Shown here: positions 8,073 to 21,240 of the stretch, piece after piece
How the letters are laid out: the number at the start of each line of letters is the position of its first letter
Numbering within the stretch: the first letter of the stretch is position 1
Assembly (NCBI RefSeq): GCF_001282685.1
Contig: NZ_LN875033.1
Span: forward strand, 2,501-66,500
Direction: 5' to 3'
DNA: 64,000 nucleotides
From: Niameybacter massiliensis
Lineage (GTDB): Bacteria; Bacillota; Clostridia; Lachnospirales; Cellulosilyticaceae
The notes under the pieces: generated by a model
Told to the model about the DNA's origin: nothing
What the model saw: the letters and a program-made list of their open reading frames with translations, nothing else
Databases searched by the model: none
Made by a program: the position numbers and the translations under genes

Positions 8073-10046
8073 CTAGTTGTTCTCGTTTTGATCCTTCATT
8101 TCTAGATGGTAATTATATCTAGTTTTAATTTCGTTTGAAACACGGCTTACAAATATGTCTAGTGCTACAGCACCTTCATCACCATTTTGTCTGCTTCTTA
8201 CAGATACAGTTCTATTCGCTTCTTCATCCATACCTACAACTAAGATGTATGGTACACGTTCCATACGTGCTTCACGGATTTTGTAACCGATTTTTTCTGT
8301 TCTGTAATCTGCTTCAACTTTTACGCCGTTATCTTTAAGTGCTTTAGTAACTTCTGCTGCATAATCAGCATATTTATCTGAAATAGGAAGTACTTTAACT
8401 GCTGTTGGTGCAAGCCATGCTGGGAACGCCCCTGCATATTTTTCAATAAGCATAGCAAGTGTTCTTTCATAACATCCAATTGATGAACGATGGATAATGT
8501 ATGGACGTTTCTTCTCTCCATTTGAATCTACATAAGTCATACCAAAACGTTCTGCTAATGCAAAGTCAATTTGGATTGTGATAATTGTATCTTCTTTACC
8601 ATGTACATTTTTAAATTGAATATCAAGTTTTGGGCCATAGAATGCAGCTTCACCCTCTGCTTCTGTATAGTCAATATCAAGATGATCTAAGATATTTTTC
8701 ATGATAACTTGAGTTTCTTCCCAAGCTGCTGGGTTATCAATATATTTCTCTGTATTTGATGGATCCCATTTAGAGAATCTGTAAGAAATATCTTTATCAA
8801 TACCAAGTGTATTCATAATGTATTTGATAAGGTCAAGACATCCTTTAAATTCATCTTCAAGTTGCTCTGGTGTACATACAATATGTCCATCTGCAAGTGT
8901 AAATTGTCTTACACGAATAAGTCCATGCATTTCTCCTGAAGATTCATTTCTTGCAAGGGTAGCTGTTTCAGCATAACGGATAGGAAGATCACGATAGCTG
9001 TGTTGCTCTGAGTTATAGATACAGAATTGGAATGGGCATGTCATTGGACGAAGTGCAATAATTTCATTATCTGTTTCTTCTTCTCCCATTACAAACATAC
9101 CATCTTTGTAGTGATCCCAGTGACCTGAAATTTTGTAAAGGTCATTTTTAGCCATGCTTGGTGTTTTTGTAAGTACATAGCCACGTCTTTCTTCCTCATC
9201 TTCTACCCATCTTTGAAGTGTTTGGATAACACGTGCACCTTTTGGCATCATAAGTGGAAGCCCTTGTCCTACTGCTTCATCTGTTGTGAAGAGTTTAAGT
9301 TCACGACCAAGTTTATTATGATCACGTTTTTTAGCTTCTTCAAGTTTTTCTAAATGCTCATTAAGCTCAGCTTTTTTAGGGAATGCTGTTGCATAGATAC
9401 GAGCAAGCATTTTGTTTTTCTCATTACCTTTCCAGTACGCACCTGCAGCATAAAGAATTTTAAAAGCATCTACTGGTTTTGTACTCATAAGGTGAGGACC
9501 TGCACAAAGGTCTACAAATTCGCCTTGTTTATAGAAAGAAATAATTTCACCTTCTGGAAGGTCACGAATAAGTTCTACTTTATATGGTTCACCTGCTTCT
9601 TCCATCATTTTAATAGCTTCTTCACGAGGAAGTTCAAATCTTTCAATAGGAAGTTTTGCTTTTACAATTTTTTTCATTTCAGCTTCAATGGCTTTAAATT
9701 CTTCCTCTGTAAATGCTGTTTCACGATCAAAATCATAGTAGAAACCATCTTCTATAGCTGGTCCAATAGCAAGTTTTACATCTGGATAGAGATTCTTAAC
9801 TGCTTGAGCTAAAATATGAGCTGCTGTATGGCGGAATGCCCATTTCCCTTCTTTATCATTGAATGTAAGAATTTCAATACTCGCATCTTCTGTAACTGGT
9901 GTTCTAAGGTCTACCATTTCACCGTTTAATTTACCTGCACAAGCAGCACGTGCTAAACCTTCACTAAGGTCTTTAGCAATATCTAAAATAGTGATACCTG
10001 CTTCATACTGCTTCTTAGTACCATCTTTTAAAGTAATATTAATCAT
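8073..10046 (-). CDS. thrS: Second threonyl-tRNA synthetase (divergent core)
   Basis: A 657-aa ThrRS that charges tRNA-Thr. Domains in order: TGS (1-62), editing domain (about 70-230; HTAAH and FVDLCAGPH zinc-site motifs intact), class II catalytic core (about 245-540) and anticodon-binding domain (about 545-645). The zinc-ligand positions are kept (Cys in RPMTCPFQF, His in ADGHIVC, His in IIHRSS), as is the motif 2 Arg (LARNESSG). The N- and C-terminal domains are very close to the neighbouring synthetase, while the catalytic core is of a different type. It follows the first thrS by 114 bp with GAGGTG before the ATG, so it is probably in the same T-box-controlled transcript. Confidence 0.92.
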   Translation of the reverse strand: MINITLKDGTKKQYEAGITILDIAKDLSEGLARAACAGKLNGEMVDLRTPVTEDASIEILTFNDKEGKWAFRHTAAHILAQAVKNLYPDVKLAIGPAIEDGFYYDFDRETAFTEEEFKAIEAEMKKIVKAKLPIERFELPREEAIKMMEEAGEPYKVELIRDLPEGEIISFYKQGEFVDLCAGPHLMSTKPVDAFKILYAAGAYWKGNEKNKMLARIYATAFPKKAELNEHLEKLEEAKKRDHNKLGRELKLFTTDEAVGQGLPLMMPKGARVIQTLQRWVEDEEERRGYVLTKTPSMAKNDLYKISGHWDHYKDGMFVMGEEETDNEIIALRPMTCPFQFCIYNSEQHSYRDLPIRYAETATLARNESSGEMHGLIRVRQFTLADGHIVCTPEQLEDEFKGCLDLIKYIMNTLGIDKDISYRFSKWDPSNTEKYIDNPAAWEETQVIMKNILDHLDIDYTEAEGEAAFYGPKLDIQFKNVHGKEDTIITIQIDFALAERFGMTYVDSNGEKKRPYIIHRSSIGCYERTLAMLIEKYAGAFPAWLAPTAVKVLPISDKYADYAAEVTKALKDNGVKVEADYRTEKIGYKIREARMERVPYILVVGMDEEANRTVSVRSRQNGDEGAVALDIFVSRVSNEIKTRYNYHLEMKDQNENN

Positions 10047-10080
10047 TTTTCACCTCTATATATTGTATAGTTTCTTTATA

Positions 10081-10130
10081 TTAAGAAGAGCTAAAGTTTA
10101 TATTACAAATAAACTTCAGCCCTTACTTAG
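10081..10130 (-). other. Intercistronic hairpin between the two thrS genes
   Basis: An imperfect inverted repeat pairs AGGGCTGAAGTTTAT with ATAAACTTTAGCTCT on the minus strand around a short loop. No strong T-tract follows, so it is more likely an mRNA stability or partial-termination element than a full terminator. Confidence 0.4.
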
Positions 10131-10160
10131 ATACTGTTTTAGTCTTCTAAACTTTTAAGT

Positions 10161-12110
10161 TTATTCTTCTGTAGTTTCTTCTGTTTTATTGCCTGAAACT
10201 AGGTAGTTATACTTAGTTTTAATTTCTTCTGTAATTTTGCCAATGAAATCTTGAAGTGGCATCTTGCCTTCTTCACCATTTTCACGACTTCTAACAGCTA
10301 CCTTATCTTCTGCTTCTTCTTCAGCACCTACAACTAAGATGTATGGTACACGTTCCATACGTGCTTCACGAATCTTGTAACCAATCTTCTCTGCACGTTC
10401 ATCAATTTCAACTTTTACACCTGCATCTAATAAGCTTGCTTGAACTTTTTCAGCATACTCATGGTATTTTTCTGAGATAGGAAGTACTTTTACTTGTACT
10501 GGAGCAAGCCATGTTGGGAATGCACCTGCAAAGTGTTCTGTAATAACCCCAATGAAACGTTCAATACTTCCTAAGATAACACGGTGAATCATAACTGGTC
10601 TGTGTTTTTCACCATCTGCTCCAACATATTCAAGTTCGAAGCGTTCTGGAAGTTGGAAGTCTAATTGGATTGTACCACATTGCCATGTTCTACCTAAGCA
10701 GTCTTCAAGTTTGAAGTCAATCTTTGGACCATAGAATGCGCCATCACCTTCGTTGATTTTGTAATCATAGCCTAAATCTGTTAAAGCTTCTTTTAAAGCT
10801 TCTGTTGCTGTTTCCCAAGCTTCATCACTACCCATACTATCTTCTGGTCTTGTAGAAACTTCTACTTTATATTTGAAACCAAATGCTTTATAAACTTCAT
10901 CAATAAGTGTTACAACACCTTTGATCTCACTCTTAATTTGTTCTGGAAGCATAAAGATATGTGCATCATCTTGAGTAAAGTTACGTACACGCATAAGACC
11001 ATGTAACGCACCTGAAAGCTCATGTCTGTGTACAAGTCCTAATTCACCCATACGAAGTGGAAGGTCACGATAAGAACGCATCTTTGTCTTATACACTAAC
11101 ATACCGCCTGGACAGTTCATAGGCTTGATCGCATAATCCATTTCATCAATGACTGTTGTGTACATGTTTTCACGGTAGTGATCCCAGTGTCCACTTGTAA
11201 GCCATAAATCTTTATTTAAAATAATTGGAGTAGAGATTTCTTGATAACCCGCTTTTTTGTGAATTTCTCTCCAATAATTAATAAGTGTGTTTCTAAGTTC
11301 CATTCCTTTTGGTAAGAAGAATGGGAAACCAGGACCTTCATCAAGGATTGTGAATAATTCAAGTTCACGCCCTAATTTACGATGATCACGTTTTTTAGCT
11401 TCTTCGATTTTAGCTAAGTGATCTGCTAACTCTGATTTTTTTGCAAATGCTGTTGCATAAATACGAGAAAGCATTTTATTCTTTTCACTACCTCTCCAGT
11501 ATGCACCTGCAACAGAAAGAAGTTTAATAGCTTCTACTGGTTTTGTAGTCATAAGGTGAGGGCCTGCACAAAGGTCTACAAATTCACCTTGTTTATAGAA
11601 GGAAATCACTTCACCTTCTGGAAGATCTTGAATTAACTCTACCTTATAAGGTTCACCTGCTTCTTCCATCATTTTAATAGCTTCTTCACGAGGAAGCTCA
11701 AATCTTTCAATAGCAAGTTTTTCTTTTACGATTTTTTTCATTTCAGCTTCAATGGCTACAAAATCTTCTTCTGTGAAAGGTCTTGCGCTATCAAAGTCAT
11801 AATAGAAACCATCTTCTATAGCTGGTCCAATTGCAAGTTTTGTATCTGGATAAAGTCTTTTAACTGCTTGAGCTAAAATATGAGCACCTGTATGACGGAA
11901 TGCCCATCTACCATCTGCATCTTTGAAAGTTACAATTTCTAACTCACAATCTTGATCTAAAGTATCTCTAAGATCTACTCTTTCACCATTTACTAGACCA
12001 CAACAAGCCATTCTTGCTAAGCCTTCGCTTAAGTCTTTTGCTACATCTAGTACACTAATACCTGCTTCGTATTGTTTTACAACACCATCTTTTAAAGTAA
12101 TGTTAATCAT
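10161..12110 (-). CDS. thrS: Threonyl-tRNA synthetase (canonical)
   Basis: A 649-aa ThrRS with TGS domain, editing domain (HTGAH, FVDLCAGPH), class II core with canonical motifs (KPMNCPGGM, LVHRHELSGALHG, TQDDAHIF, VMIHRVILGS) and an anticodon-binding domain at about 540-635. The zinc ligands Cys/His/His are present. A clear AAGGGAGGG precedes the ATG. Its transcript begins with a threonine T-box. This copy has the usual core, so it is probably the housekeeping enzyme; the second copy lies directly downstream. Confidence 0.97.
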   Translation of the reverse strand: MINITLKDGVVKQYEAGISVLDVAKDLSEGLARMACCGLVNGERVDLRDTLDQDCELEIVTFKDADGRWAFRHTGAHILAQAVKRLYPDTKLAIGPAIEDGFYYDFDSARPFTEEDFVAIEAEMKKIVKEKLAIERFELPREEAIKMMEEAGEPYKVELIQDLPEGEVISFYKQGEFVDLCAGPHLMTTKPVEAIKLLSVAGAYWRGSEKNKMLSRIYATAFAKKSELADHLAKIEEAKKRDHRKLGRELELFTILDEGPGFPFFLPKGMELRNTLINYWREIHKKAGYQEISTPIILNKDLWLTSGHWDHYRENMYTTVIDEMDYAIKPMNCPGGMLVYKTKMRSYRDLPLRMGELGLVHRHELSGALHGLMRVRNFTQDDAHIFMLPEQIKSEIKGVVTLIDEVYKAFGFKYKVEVSTRPEDSMGSDEAWETATEALKEALTDLGYDYKINEGDGAFYGPKIDFKLEDCLGRTWQCGTIQLDFQLPERFELEYVGADGEKHRPVMIHRVILGSIERFIGVITEHFAGAFPTWLAPVQVKVLPISEKYHEYAEKVQASLLDAGVKVEIDERAEKIGYKIREARMERVPYILVVGAEEEAEDKVAVRSRENGEEGKMPLQDFIGKITEEIKTKYNYLVSGNKTEETTEE

Positions 12111-12159
12111 AACATTCCCTCCCTTTTCAATATAGTGTGTACTATTTCTAGAATTTGGG

Positions 12160-12415
12160 CATCAAAAAACTCTCGTCCTTTTCTAGCCACAAAAACTAGA
12201 AAAGGGACGAGAGTACATTTCCCGCGGTTCCACCCTTATTGTTTCTTTTAGAAACCTCTTGTTTCGACTATAACGTAGTCAACGGATTGGTTCTCAATCA
12301 CTCAGAGTTGGTCTTCACCTATATTGCTTTAAAAATGCTCCCACCAACGCATCTTCTCTCTGAAAAAGTTCTATAAGCTACTTGTCTCTTCAACGTTTTT
12401 AAATATTCTATACTC
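12160..12415 (-). promoter_or_regulatory. Threonine T-box leader
   Basis: On the minus strand the T-box core AGGGTGGAACCGCGGG is clear near 12215-12230. It is followed by a long terminator (ACTCTCGTCC... with GGACGAGAGT, 12163-12213) and a T-run. Stem I has the usual AGAGA-rich start, and an ACC triplet (12310-12312) sits where the specifier should be, matching threonine. Uncharged tRNA-Thr stabilises the antiterminator and lets thrS be transcribed. Confidence 0.93.
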
Positions 12416-12468: not shown

Positions 12469-13314
12469 TTACAGCTGTTTTTGACAAAACTCACAGCCTT
12501 TACAACATATAAGTTGATCTCTAAAAAGAGTCTTGAGTGTTTCTAAAAATGGTTTATTTAATTTTTCATAGAAATCATGTAATACAATCTCTTTTGGAGA
12601 TAAAGTGATAAGCATATGCAACACGCGGTCTTCTATAGTAAGTGCTTCATCTTCCAAGTCTTCACAATACAGTTTGGTCCAATAATCCGTTTGATCTTTT
12701 TCTTCTTCATCAAACAATAAAATAGTACCATCCTGTCTAGGCACTAAATGAACAAGCTCTATTTGTTCTTCCTGTAATCCCTTCATTTGTAGCAAAAAAT
12801 TTATAAATTGTATATAGTCTTTTTGCATCTCATAGTCATATATGGTCTGTTCTATTACATCTTCAAGGATTACTTTATATTTTTCACTTCTAAAAGTAAT
12901 CCAGCCATCTATGTTAATTTCCTTATATTTCTCTAATTCTTTATATATAGGAGTATAAATTACATAATAAGAAATATAAGATACACCATCTTCCTTAGCT
13001 ATATAGTTATTATGGATAAATAATTTTTCTATTTCTCTTTTCTCCATTTTATCTAAGTCTTTACGAGCCCTTAAATAAGTTTTTGCAAATCCCTTTAAAA
13101 GTTCCTCTTGAATAAAATCTCCTATTAAAGTTACCATATTATTCAAGCTTTGCTCTTTATCTTTTTTATTCGGAGTAAATTTAAAACTATCTATATGCGC
13201 AAAGTGCTCTTCTTCCCATTTCTCTCCTTGAAACTTTTGCTCTATTAAAGCACTCTCTAGTTTCGTCTTAAAAGGTTCTCCATACTTTTGTGTCCAGACT
13301 TTATATTGAATCAT
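12469..13314 (-). CDS. ytxC: YtxC-like sporulation-associated protein
   Basis: A 281-aa protein without signal peptide or clear enzymatic motif. Size, charged helical character, the VIEQTIYDYEMQKDYIQFI region and position directly upstream of thrS (as in Bacillus subtilis, where ytxC sits by thrS) fit the YtxC family, linked to sporulation but of unknown biochemical role. The C-terminus ends in a CCKGCEFCQ cysteine cluster that could bind a metal. The assignment rests on synteny plus general resemblance. Confidence 0.7.
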   Translation of the reverse strand: MIQYKVWTQKYGEPFKTKLESALIEQKFQGEKWEEEHFAHIDSFKFTPNKKDKEQSLNNMVTLIGDFIQEELLKGFAKTYLRARKDLDKMEKREIEKLFIHNNYIAKEDGVSYISYYVIYTPIYKELEKYKEINIDGWITFRSEKYKVILEDVIEQTIYDYEMQKDYIQFINFLLQMKGLQEEQIELVHLVPRQDGTILLFDEEEKDQTDYWTKLYCEDLEDEALTIEDRVLHMLITLSPKEIVLHDFYEKLNKPFLETLKTLFRDQLICCKGCEFCQKQL

Positions 13315-13391
13315 TGTATGCCTCCTCTGACTCCTCTAATTCAATATATGAGTGACCACTTGTTCACTTTCCCCAATATTAAATGTTCTTT

Positions 13392-13419
13392 TTGAATATT
13401 TTTAGTATGAGGATAAAAT
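13392..13419 (+). promoter_or_regulatory. Promoter for the large structured RNA
   Basis: TTGAAT (13392-13397) and TAAAAT (13414-13419) are spaced by 16 bp and would start transcription near 13426-13428, just before the 5' strand of the closing stem. Confidence 0.6.
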
Positions 13420-13426
13420 AAATATT

Positions 13427-14340
13427 TGGTTAAGTGTGAGGGCATGTAGGCAAGCTTATTATACTCCAACTTTTAGTCCTCAACCTTTAAGAGAGGCTAA
13501 GTTCATTTCATCAAACTAACGGTCAAAACTCAGAAAACAAGTTCACTTTTCTTCAAACATTTCCCTAAAACCAGTTTGATTCCATTCACTAAGCCTCTCT
13601 AAAAAGTCTGCGGAGGAAGTTTCCATACAATAACTTACCTTACAGCCCATCACATAATAGCCCCTTCCGATAGAAAAATAGCTAAACTACTGATGTATTT
13701 TCTAAACATCTTTCATGTGAAAATGCTTAATCATTTAGAAGTTTAAATCAAAAGCACTATCAATTCTACAAAGCGTGTCTTACTTAACCCAGTAGCAAAA
13801 GGCATTGATACCTGCAAGATTTTGCCTTCCGAAGAAGAAACATTTACTCCTATCTCTTCACCACGGGGTGTCACTGGAAGTGAAAACTTACCTTCGTGAG
13901 TAGAAAAGGGCAGTAATACGTGGGTAACCTCACTGGAGCTTTTTTCGAGGATGGACTTAGAATATAAGCTACATGCAGTTTAGTAATCTCTCCGCCGGCA
14001 CAGTCCACAAAGTGAGGGAGGCATATTCGTAGACTTGATTCAGTGAGCTGGATAGGTGCGTTCTCCGGAATCTGCCTACGTAGCTTTCAGATAAGAAATG
14101 TACGAAATAAAAAAATAATGGTTTTAGGTGTGCTGTTTGAGCGTAGCGAGTTCACACCGTTATTATTTTGAATGAGTTACATTTCTCTGAAAGCTGAGTG
14201 TAGCAGGTGGAGGAGAATCCACCTAGCTAACTCACGCAAGTAGACTAAATATAAGCACACCCTCACTCTATAAAATATTTATTCTATAATTCAACGTATA
14301 AGAAGGGCTACTACGCATTTTGCGTAGTAGCCCTTCTATA
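13427..14340 (+). ncRNA. Large structured non-coding RNA, class unknown
   Basis: About 900 bp without a credible coding frame, visibly richer in G+C than nearby intergenic DNA. The ends pair: 13436-13442 with 14260-14266, 13445-13447 with 14257-14259, and 13454-13459 with 14251-14256. Internal helices: 13491-13498 with 13592-13599, continued by 13500-13502/13588-13590 and 13510-13517/13573-13580; 13952-13957 with 14002-14007; 14082-14091 with 14186-14195 plus 14095-14102 with 14178-14185, enclosing 14112-14119/14162-14169 and 14127-14132/14153-14158; and a three-part hairpin at 14196-14234. A promoter lies upstream and a perfect 17-bp terminator stem (14301-14317/14321-14337) downstream, so it is an independent gene, divergent from ytxC and convergent with the PTS gene. 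Size and architecture resemble the large ornate bacterial RNAs (OLE, GOLLD, ROOL, HEARO), but I cannot assign it to any of them. Confidence 0.75.
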
Positions 14341-14345
14341 TAGTC
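14301..14345 (+). terminator. Bidirectional terminator between RNA gene and PTS gene
   Basis: A perfect 17-bp inverted repeat (14301-14317, 14321-14337) with a TTT loop. The T-rich tail (TATATAGTCTTTTTT) is on the + side, favouring the RNA transcript; it can also end the PTS message. Confidence 0.85.
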
Positions 14346-14349
14346 TTTT

Positions 14350-15789
14350 TTATTTACAAAGTTTTGCTAATTCATCAGCAACAAATTGTACTTGTGTTCC
14401 AATAATAATTTGGATACTTGTTTTGCTTGGTCTCATAACACCACGAGCACCTGATGATTTAATTTTCTTTTCATCAATTAATGTGTAATCTTTGATTTCA
14501 AGTCTTAAACGTGTGATACAGTTATCAATAGATGCAACGTTACCTTTTCCACCAAGACCTTCTAAGATTGTTTTAGCTACTGCTGTGTAGTCATTATTTG
14601 CAAGAGTTACTTGTGTTTCATCTCCATCAACATCATCGTCTTCCCTACCTGGTGTTTTAAGATTGAATTTAGTAATAACAAATCTAAATACTGCATAGTA
14701 AACTACACTAAAACCTAAGCCAATTGGAACTAACCATAATGGGTTAAGTGCCATTGGTGCTTTTAAACTAAGTACTAAGTCAACAAGACCTGCACTAAAG
14801 TTGAAACCAGCTCTTACTGGTAATAAAGCTACAATAAATGCTGAAATACCTGTTAAGATAGCATGGATTAAGTATAATACTGGAGCTAAGAACATGAATG
14901 CAAATTCAAGTGGTTCTGTAACCCCTGTAAAGAATGAACAAAGTGCTGCAGCACTTAATAAACCAAATGCTACTTTTTTCTTGTTATCTTTAGCTGTATG
15001 ATACATAGCTAAAGCTGCTGCTGGTAAACCAAACATCATAACTGGGAAGAATCCTGACATGTACATACCTGTTTGACCAAGTGTACCTGTACCTGCCCAG
15101 AAGTTACCTAAGTCATTGATTCCTGCAACGTCAAACCAGAATACTGAGTTAAGTGCATGGTGAAGACCAACTGGGATAAGTAAACGGTTAAGGAATGCAT
15201 AGATACCTGCCCCAACTGCACCTGTACTAATAATTGCTTTACCAATAGCCACAAGTCCTGTATAAAGAATAGGCCATACAAAGAATAAGATTAATACTGC
15301 AATAAGGCTGACTGTTGCTGTAACAATTGCTACACAACGCTTACCACTAAAGAATGATAAGAAATCTGGTAACTTAGTATTTTTGAATTTGTTGTAACAT
15401 GTAGCACCTATAATACCTGCAAGAATACCAATGAATTGGTTTTCTATTTTTCCAAATGCCATATTAGCTTCTGCACCTGTTAATGCCGCAACTGTTCCTG
15501 TTGATAATAATTTAGTAATCATTAACCATGATACTAATGCTGCAAGTCCGGATGTTCCATCTTTATCATCAGACATACCAACACCAACACCAATTGCAAA
15601 TAAAATAGCCATGTTATCAATTAAAGCACCACCTGCTTTAACCAAGAATGTTGCTACAACATTTGCATCTCCTGTAATCATAATGTTTGGGTCAATCCAG
15701 TATCCTATTCCCATAAGGATACCTGCAACTGGTAAACATGCTACCGGGAGCATTAATGATTTACCGAGTTTTTGAAGATACTTCATCAT
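14350..15789 (-). CDS. PTS sugar permease IIBC, GlcNAc/glucose type
   Basis: A 479-aa membrane permease of the glucose/maltose/N-acetylglucosamine PTS family. The IIC domain (about 1-375, around ten membrane segments) begins MMKYLQKLGKSLMLPVACLP; after a linker, the IIB domain (about 400-479) carries the phospho-cysteine in NCITRLRL. It imports and phosphorylates its sugar with phosphate from HPr and EIIA. There is no IIA domain; the separate EIIA at 33.5 kb could serve it. The frame is open to 15876, but GGGGGA lies just before the ATG pair at 15789, so I chose that start. Nearby nagA/nagB make GlcNAc the likely substrate. A LicT-type RAT/terminator controls it. Confidence 0.88.
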   Translation of the reverse strand: MMKYLQKLGKSLMLPVACLPVAGILMGIGYWIDPNIMITGDANVVATFLVKAGGALIDNMAILFAIGVGVGMSDDKDGTSGLAALVSWLMITKLLSTGTVAALTGAEANMAFGKIENQFIGILAGIIGATCYNKFKNTKLPDFLSFFSGKRCVAIVTATVSLIAVLILFFVWPILYTGLVAIGKAIISTGAVGAGIYAFLNRLLIPVGLHHALNSVFWFDVAGINDLGNFWAGTGTLGQTGMYMSGFFPVMMFGLPAAALAMYHTAKDNKKKVAFGLLSAAALCSFFTGVTEPLEFAFMFLAPVLYLIHAILTGISAFIVALLPVRAGFNFSAGLVDLVLSLKAPMALNPLWLVPIGLGFSVVYYAVFRFVITKFNLKTPGREDDDVDGDETQVTLANNDYTAVAKTILEGLGGKGNVASIDNCITRLRLEIKDYTLIDEKKIKSSGARGVMRPSKTSIQIIIGTQVQFVADELAKLCK

Positions 15790-21027: not shown

Positions 21028-21054
21028 TAGACACAATTAAATACGCATTTTTCC

Positions 21055-21240
21055 AATCACGTAGAGGCGCGATGCTTATCAGTACTTTTTATGATCTTTG
21101 CAAGAAGAAATGACTAAATAGGAAAGGACGTATCGCCGAAGGAGTAAAACGCTTGCACACTTTGTTCCTGGGGGTATAGTTAATAACTATACAACTGTCA
21201 CCTTTTGCTATACAATAGGTGGTGTGCTACTGTGTTTAAA
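21055..21240 (+). promoter_or_regulatory. Lysine riboswitch (L-box)
   Basis: Contains the conserved blocks GTAGAGGCGCG, ATCAGTA, AGGAAAGGACGTATCGCCGAAGGAG and the later CTGGGGGTATAG...ACTGTCACC, ending in a helix with GGTGGTGTGCTACTGTG. It precedes asd-dapA-dapB, the lysine/diaminopimelate pathway. Lysine binding favours the downstream terminator. Confidence 0.95.

What the first reader, a model, noticed from the sequence alone, without database searches (positions are those of the whole stretch)
13392..14345. Large ornate non-coding RNA gene of unassigned class
About 900 bp of non-coding sequence carry all the marks of an independent structured RNA gene on the + strand: a TTGAAT/TAAAAT promoter, a closing stem joining both ends over 800 nt (13436-13459 with 14251-14266), long multi-part helices with internal loops in matching positions (13491-13517/13573-13599; 14082-14102/14178-14195; 14196-14234), and a 17-bp terminator. 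Very few bacterial RNA classes are this large. It is not a leader of a neighbouring gene: it diverges from ytxC and converges on the PTS gene. I cannot place it in OLE, GOLLD, ROOL, HEARO, RNase P, tmRNA or group II introns by motif.
Basis: partly seen in the sequence, partly recalled or inferred. Interest (0 to 1): 0.88.

Follow-up and report, generated by a model that had tools for sequence, protein, structure and literature searches.

The report
Dispersed repeat of two inverted hairpins
The supposed giant RNA gene is one copy of a dispersed, non-coding, probably mobile DNA repeat made of two mirror-image copies of a folded hairpin whose core also turns up in distantly related bacteria and matches no described RNA family.

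Summary
The helices are real, but this is not a single-copy RNA gene. Window 13417-14283 is one of 17 full-length copies (616-954 bp) of a dispersed repeat in its own genome; 16 further fetched loci are partial or weak matches. Full copies share imperfect ~26-bp terminal inverted repeats and have unrelated flanks. The two arms are homologous long hairpins in opposite orientation: a covariance model built only from relatives hits 13488-13600 on minus (E 2e-12) and 14092-14190 on plus (E 8e-11), next hit E 0.98. The fold covaries, occurs in 9 of 24 genomes of the family, in one of them with at least 14 minus/plus pairs, and its core recurs in contigs labelled as other phyla. No Rfam family fits. 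The 16 resolved full copies lie between convergent (8) or tandem (8) genes, as REPINs do, but no RAYT tag and no cognate transposase was found. Best reading: non-autonomous REPIN/MITE-like mobile DNA whose fold is selected as a single strand; mobiliser unknown.

The parts
13417..14283 (.). whole element, one of 17 full-length copies in this genome
13417..13442 (.). left terminal inverted repeat AATAAATATTTGGTTAAGTGTGAGGG
14258..14283 (.). right terminal inverted repeat (imperfect complement of the left one)
13436..13653 (-). left hairpin unit; its 3' tail runs into the left terminal repeat
   Evidence: ends read from the sequence; consensus fold favours the minus strand
13488..13600 (-). conserved core of the left hairpin (model R1, E 2.1e-12)
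13876..13963 (+). stretch shared with the 5' arm of the type-A right module of other copies (inferred truncated remnant)
   Evidence: the remnant reading is inference
14011..14266 (+). right hairpin unit (type B); its 3' tail runs into the right terminal repeat
   Evidence: ends read from the sequence; consensus fold favours the plus strand
14092..14190 (+). conserved core of the right hairpin (model R1, E 7.6e-11)
14301..14337 (.).

Best explanation
The region is a non-autonomous, non-coding interspersed element, REPIN/MITE-like: imperfect ~26-bp terminal inverted repeats around two homologous ~220-255-nt imperfect hairpins in inverted orientation (3' tails outward), separated by a variable mosaic middle. 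SHOWN: multicopy, shared ends, unrelated flanks, no coding capacity, inverted homologous units, covarying fold, wobble asymmetry in unit orientation, location between convergent or tandem genes. INFERRED: it spread by transposition catalysed in trans by an enzyme that recognises the terminal repeats and/or the folded hairpin when one strand is single (replication or a transposition intermediate). Selection on that single-strand fold would explain covariation and the excess of G-T/G-U over A-C; random orientation of units relative to neighbouring genes argues against a cis role in mRNA. The enzyme is unknown.
For: 17 full copies with common ends. Relatives-only model hits both arms on opposite strands. 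29 of 30 pairs with double changes against 12-16 when slid; 18 of 29 against 0-7 in relatives only. G-T against A-C events, intersection structures, in unit orientation: 13:8, 9:2, 9:5, 10:4, sum 41:19, binomial p 0.006 if independent, which they are not fully. At least 14 minus/plus pairs in G002 (my reading of a capped list). Context 8 convergent, 8 tandem, 0 divergent, 1 unresolved of 17. No orientation bias of units in relatives: 10 sense and 12 antisense tandem.
Against: No target-site duplication of 3-10 bp, no empty site seen, no transposase sharing the ends. Terminal-repeat matches that were followed up lie in copies or fragments beside ordinary genes; one more was a chance match in an ORF. 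In one search one measure (further pair types) does not exceed shuffles (56 against 57.3; 377 of 500 reach it). Two of 35 units in relatives lie between divergent genes. ssDNA and RNA cannot be told apart by the wobble test.
Confidence: 0.7

Rival explanations
1. The hairpin unit is a structured RNA (selfish or regulatory) transcribed from each arm, and the repeat is its carrier.
For: Strong covariation, G-U excess in unit orientation, conserved unpaired stretches, location downstream of genes.
Against: No promoter above chance and no terminator called; no orientation preference relative to neighbouring genes; ssDNA folding predicts the same pair counts; no Rfam match.
Confidence: 0.2
2. It is a REPIN proper: mobilised by the genome's single Y1 (RAYT/TIRYT-type) transposase.
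For: Inverted doublets and placement as described for REPINs/REPs (abstracts); one Y1_Tnp protein of 297 aa here. Y1 frames of 296-322 aa in 7 of 9 family genomes with the hairpin against 2 of 15 without.
Against: The Y1 gene is flanked by its own GGGACGGTTC inverted repeats, not by this element. G012 and single-contig G212 have the hairpin but no Y1_Tnp match. In the class sample, Y1 occurs in 5 of 7 genomes with the hairpin and 8 of 18 without. The association follows genera, so kinship may explain it.
Confidence: 0.07
3. One large + strand ornate RNA of ~0.85 kb.
For: Fold z -7.9; non-coding; no Rfam hit.
Against: Multicopy mosaic with variable middle; closing stem does not covary; arms in opposite orientation; minus strand folds better still; promoter at chance level, no terminator called.
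Confidence: 0.03

Closest known systems
REPINs / BIMEs (inverted REP doublets)
   Same: Non-coding, high copy, inverted hairpin doublets, intergenic, between tandem or convergent genes
   Different: Units ~220-255 nt instead of 20-40 bp REPs; no GTAG/CGTC tag seen at the hairpin feet; no flanking RAYT; hairpin present in genomes without Y1_Tnp
Bacterial MITEs
   Same: No ORF, terminal inverted repeats, dispersed copies with unrelated flanks
   Different: No target-site duplication of 3-10 bp, no autonomous partner found; carries a covarying hairpin core that also sits in elements with other ends
GOLLD, ROOL, OLE, HEARO large RNAs
   Same: Large, non-coding, strongly folded
   Different: No Rfam match; multicopy with terminal repeats; two homologous arms folded in opposite orientation

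Membership tests
REPIN (RAYT-mobilised) | inverted doublet of homologous palindromic units | tested here: met
REPIN (RAYT-mobilised) | small REP units (20-40 bp) with an unpaired GTAG or CGTC tag | tested here: not met
   units ~220-255 nt; neither tag seen by eye at the feet of the two hairpins; definition from the abstract of PMC3733652
REPIN (RAYT-mobilised) | cognate RAYT flanked by the same repeats | tested here: not met
   the only Y1_Tnp of this genome has other flanking repeats; G212 has none
MITE | terminal inverted repeats, no ORF, dispersed copies | tested here: met
MITE | target-site duplication | tested here: not met
   3-10 bp tested on 17 copies, best z 1.8; 2 bp not tested
MITE | autonomous relative with the same ends | tested here: inconclusive
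   none found by end patterns in this one assembly; other strains not searched
Known large RNAs of Rfam (GOLLD, ROOL, OLE, HEARO and others) | match to the family's covariance model | tested here: not met
   window; relatives
Independent RNA gene | own transcript | not testable with these tools
   no expression data; promoter scan at chance level

The most novel reading that the evidence does not exclude
The hairpin core (TTAG-stem-TGTYTGA-apical stem-GAGTT-stem) defines an undescribed class of folded single-strand module that recurs in elements with unrelated ends in Clostridia and, by model score, in contigs labelled Spongiibacteraceae, Nitrospirae, Bacilli and Cyanobacteria. It would be recognised by a conserved but unknown bacterial factor and multiplied in several genomes as inverted pairs.
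Probability: 0.3. Interest if true: 0.75.

Novelty: new variant of a known kind. Interest (0 to 1): 0.5.

Why it matters
Bacterial interspersed hairpins are usually small and, where studied, tied to RAYT transposases. Here a large one, with a core shared across genera and apparently phyla, covaries like a structured RNA yet is laid out like mobile DNA and lacks an evident transposase. It shows how a folding score alone can turn a repeat into a 'giant RNA', and it poses a testable question: which enzyme or binding factor keeps this fold conserved.

Tried and rejected
Rfam with weak hits listed: nothing credible. Y1/RAYT as mobiliser: its flanks differ and G012 and G212 lack it; not favoured, not excluded. 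Insertion into palindromes or terminators: a first inverted-flank signal (best z 3.7 of many settings) failed a duplex-energy test in which the true flank pairs were no more complementary than shuffled pairs (z 0.15 to 2.4 towards less); rejected. Autonomous partner near hairpins in other lineages: comparison of 556 ORFs from 43 loci gave between-lineage similarities that look like ordinary cellular genes by eye. Ten ORFs beside one-ended fragments: Pfam gave no transposase family. Plasmid and phage collections: no match for the element; hairpins of two other lineages searched in plasmids only, no match. The left-module core string gave 0 stretches in genome contigs (records of this genome or very near ones may be left out). 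Viral contigs: 3 matches of the core pattern, none of them a model hit. A protein lying between two hairpins of one contig was also sought in viral contigs: nothing. Papers: none holds the six motif strings searched; the other searches listed mainly repeat, MITE and large-RNA literature and nothing that describes this element in the titles and abstracts shown. Many subscription journals are not held.

Rows dropped: four odd cores were set aside, two of them put back trimmed, near-identical ones removed (76 to 48), and one long-insert row then left out of A1 (47). Two rows were left out of the relatives' alignment. Ten of the 43 loci, judged Cellulosilyticum-type, were not given to the model. 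My chance estimate for the pattern is rough (a few expected, 43 found); L203 and L225 look like chance. The loci had been picked by the motif, so their E-values flatter, and several are MAG contigs that may be mis-binned; long hairpins from four Comamonadaceae, Brachymonas and Variovorax loci are not hit by the model.

Full report
OBSERVATION. The region 13392-14345 holds no ORF above 45 aa and folds far better than dinucleotide shuffles on both strands (z -7.9 plus; z -10.5 minus). Rfam release 15 gives no match there at gathering score and nothing credible below it. Promoter-like pairs are at chance level (3 found, 2.9 in shuffles) and no terminator-like site was called in 13300-14400. The 17-bp hairpin at 14301-14337 lies outside the element and has no match in the genome but itself.

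IT IS A REPEAT. blastn of the region against its own genome gave 76 matching pieces at E <= 10, which I group into 31 separate places with a piece at E <= 1.6e-4. I fetched 33 loci. Seventeen of 33, the window's included, hold a full-length element of 616-954 bp measured from TAAATATTT to the last TATTTATT-like end; the other 16 are partial or weak. The ends are imperfect inverted repeats of about 26 bp (left AATAAATATTTGGTTAAGTGTGAGGG; right in variants such as CCCTCACTTAACCAATTATTTATT or TTTTCACTCCATAAAATATTTATT). Patterns for the two ends gave 23 and 26 matches, with 0 for the reversed control patterns. Flanks are unrelated between copies. The window copy spans 13417-14283. Apart from full copies I looked at the one-ended fragments: ten neighbouring ORFs have ordinary Pfam domains and no transposase. 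One isolated right-end-like match is a chance hit inside a 375-aa ORF without element or model hit.

ANATOMY. The left ~290 bp is conserved, the middle is variable, and there are two alternative right modules: 8 copies with type A, 8 with type B including the window, and one shortened copy. Before its type-B module the window has a stretch (13876-13963) shared with the 5' arm of the type-A module; that it is a truncated remnant is inference. Consensus folding of the left arm (23 sequences) favours the minus strand (-51.6 against -32.3) and of the right type-B arm (9 sequences) the plus strand (-85.3 against -73.0). The reason is that both arms are copies of one hairpin in opposite orientation, as the model search shows.

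RELATIVES. In 96 genomes searched (the own one included), the best match outside the own genome was a 45-bp piece of the right arm. Around such pieces, relatives in the same family carry hairpin repeats of roughly 200-400 bp with the same core. One of these genomes, G016, is Cellulosilyticum ruminicola JCM 14822, judged from equal contig length and position. A covariance model R1 was built from 25 cores of relatives, none from this genome. In the 64-kb window it hits 13600-13488 on minus (61.5 bits, E 2.1e-12) and 14092-14190 on plus (55.2 bits, E 7.6e-11); the next hit has E 0.98. In the 33 own-genome loci it finds 45 places. In the family 9 of 24 genomes (own included) have hits: G008 66, G002 47, G000 44, G015 32, G012 15, G016 13, G018 8, G021 5, G006 2; candidates scored were capped at 150 per genome. 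In G002 I read at least 14 minus/plus pairs 0.3-1.0 kb apart from the listing. In the class, 8 of 291 genomes (own included) have hits under stricter filters. E-values of R1 are rough because calibration was short. Isolated single hairpins also occur in this genome.

COVARIATION. On 47 cores including this genome's own, 29 of 30 pairs show changes on both sides; slid controls give 12-16; one of the five measures (further pair types) is not above shuffles. The outer helix is imperfectly aligned between module types there (81.7% of cells paired). On the 25 relatives' cores it is 18 of 29 against 0-7, with all five measures above all 500 shuffles. Conserved stretches outside the helices (TTAG; TGTYTGA and GAGTT) flank the varying stems. 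In structures common to both strands, G-T outnumbers A-C in each unit's own orientation: relatives 13:8, own right B 9:2, own right A 9:5, own left read on minus 10:4. The sum, 41:19, has binomial p 0.006 if events were independent. This points to selection on one single strand per unit, a different one for each arm.

BEYOND THE FAMILY. The core pattern gave 43 stretches in genome contigs and 3 in viral contigs. Most of the 43 lie in long imperfect hairpins. Of 36 loci outside the Cellulosilyticum-type records (33 genome, 3 viral) given to R1, 20 have a hit at E <= 0.001, among them contigs labelled Spongiibacteraceae, Nitrospirae, Bacilli and Cyanobacteria besides several Clostridia. They were selected by the motif and many are MAGs, so this is suggestive only. 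In G212 (class level, one contig) the element is, by my reading, a single hairpin of about 270 bp with other ends, and that end pattern matches 224 places with up to 3 mismatches. The core thus rides in elements with different ends. The apical loop is GNA in 35 of 45 matches, its G being fixed by the pattern. That GNA loops make unusually stable DNA mini-hairpins is recalled, not read here.

CONTEXT AND MOBILITY. By simple ORF calls, 8 of the 17 full copies lie between convergent and 8 between tandem genes, 0 between divergent ones, 1 unresolved; in seven (L038, L041, L042, L044, L046, L049, L053) a flanking ORF ends within 8 bp of the element end. No target-site duplication of 3-10 bp was found. 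In relatives, of 35 units 10 are sense tandem, 12 antisense tandem, 5 convergent, 2 divergent, 6 unresolved, so there is no orientation preference.

WHICH ENZYME. The genome has one Y1_Tnp protein of 297 aa, flanked by GGGACGGTTC inverted repeats of its own, which recall the TIR-associated tyrosine transposases described in PMC3733652 (abstract, one section and passages seen). Y1 frames of 296-322 aa occur in 7 of 9 family genomes with the hairpin against 2 of 15 without. But G012 and G212 have the hairpin and no Y1_Tnp match, and in a class sample Y1 is present in 5 of 7 genomes with and 8 of 18 without the hairpin. I therefore do not file the element under REPINs, although it is laid out like them (PMC3116915, abstract). 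Large folded repeat families of unknown role are known in principle (PMC2267715, passages). GOLLD, ROOL and OLE are different objects (PMC12286853, abstract).

VERDICT. A real, strongly structured repeat family with a conserved hairpin core, for which my searches found no description: a new variant of the REPIN/MITE kind rather than a giant RNA gene. Whether the selected strand is ssDNA or RNA is open. I lean to DNA because of the inverted layout, the missing expression signals and the random orientation.

Noticed in passing
window 8073-12402: Two adjacent threonyl-tRNA synthetase genes (8073-10046 and 10161-12110, both minus) lie downstream of a T-box leader (12200-12402 minus).
   Followed up: partly
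window 21054-21237: Lysine riboswitch on the plus strand.
   Followed up: no
L193 793-1010 and 5263-5479: In a contig labelled Comamonadaceae, two inverted, nearly identical copies of a long hairpin flank a 1298-aa gene that PADLOC names PD-Lambda-4_A, a phage-defence protein.
   Followed up: partly
L157 2453-3602: Single-copy Y1_Tnp gene of this genome bounded by GGGACGGTTC inverted repeats, like TIR-associated tyrosine transposases.
   Followed up: partly
L132-L135 (G008): A second, separate ~105-nt hairpin repeat (GGTCCGC...GCTA) occurs alone and next to the core hairpin in inverted orientation in G008.
   Followed up: partly
L254, L262, L244 (G212): Besides hairpin-bearing copies, G212 seems to hold much shorter elements with similar ends and no hairpin; the end pattern matches 224 places.
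   Followed up: no
L234 about 1150-1490: A stretch of roughly 215 bp appears twice in tandem directly before an isolated core hairpin in the own genome (by eye).
   Followed up: no
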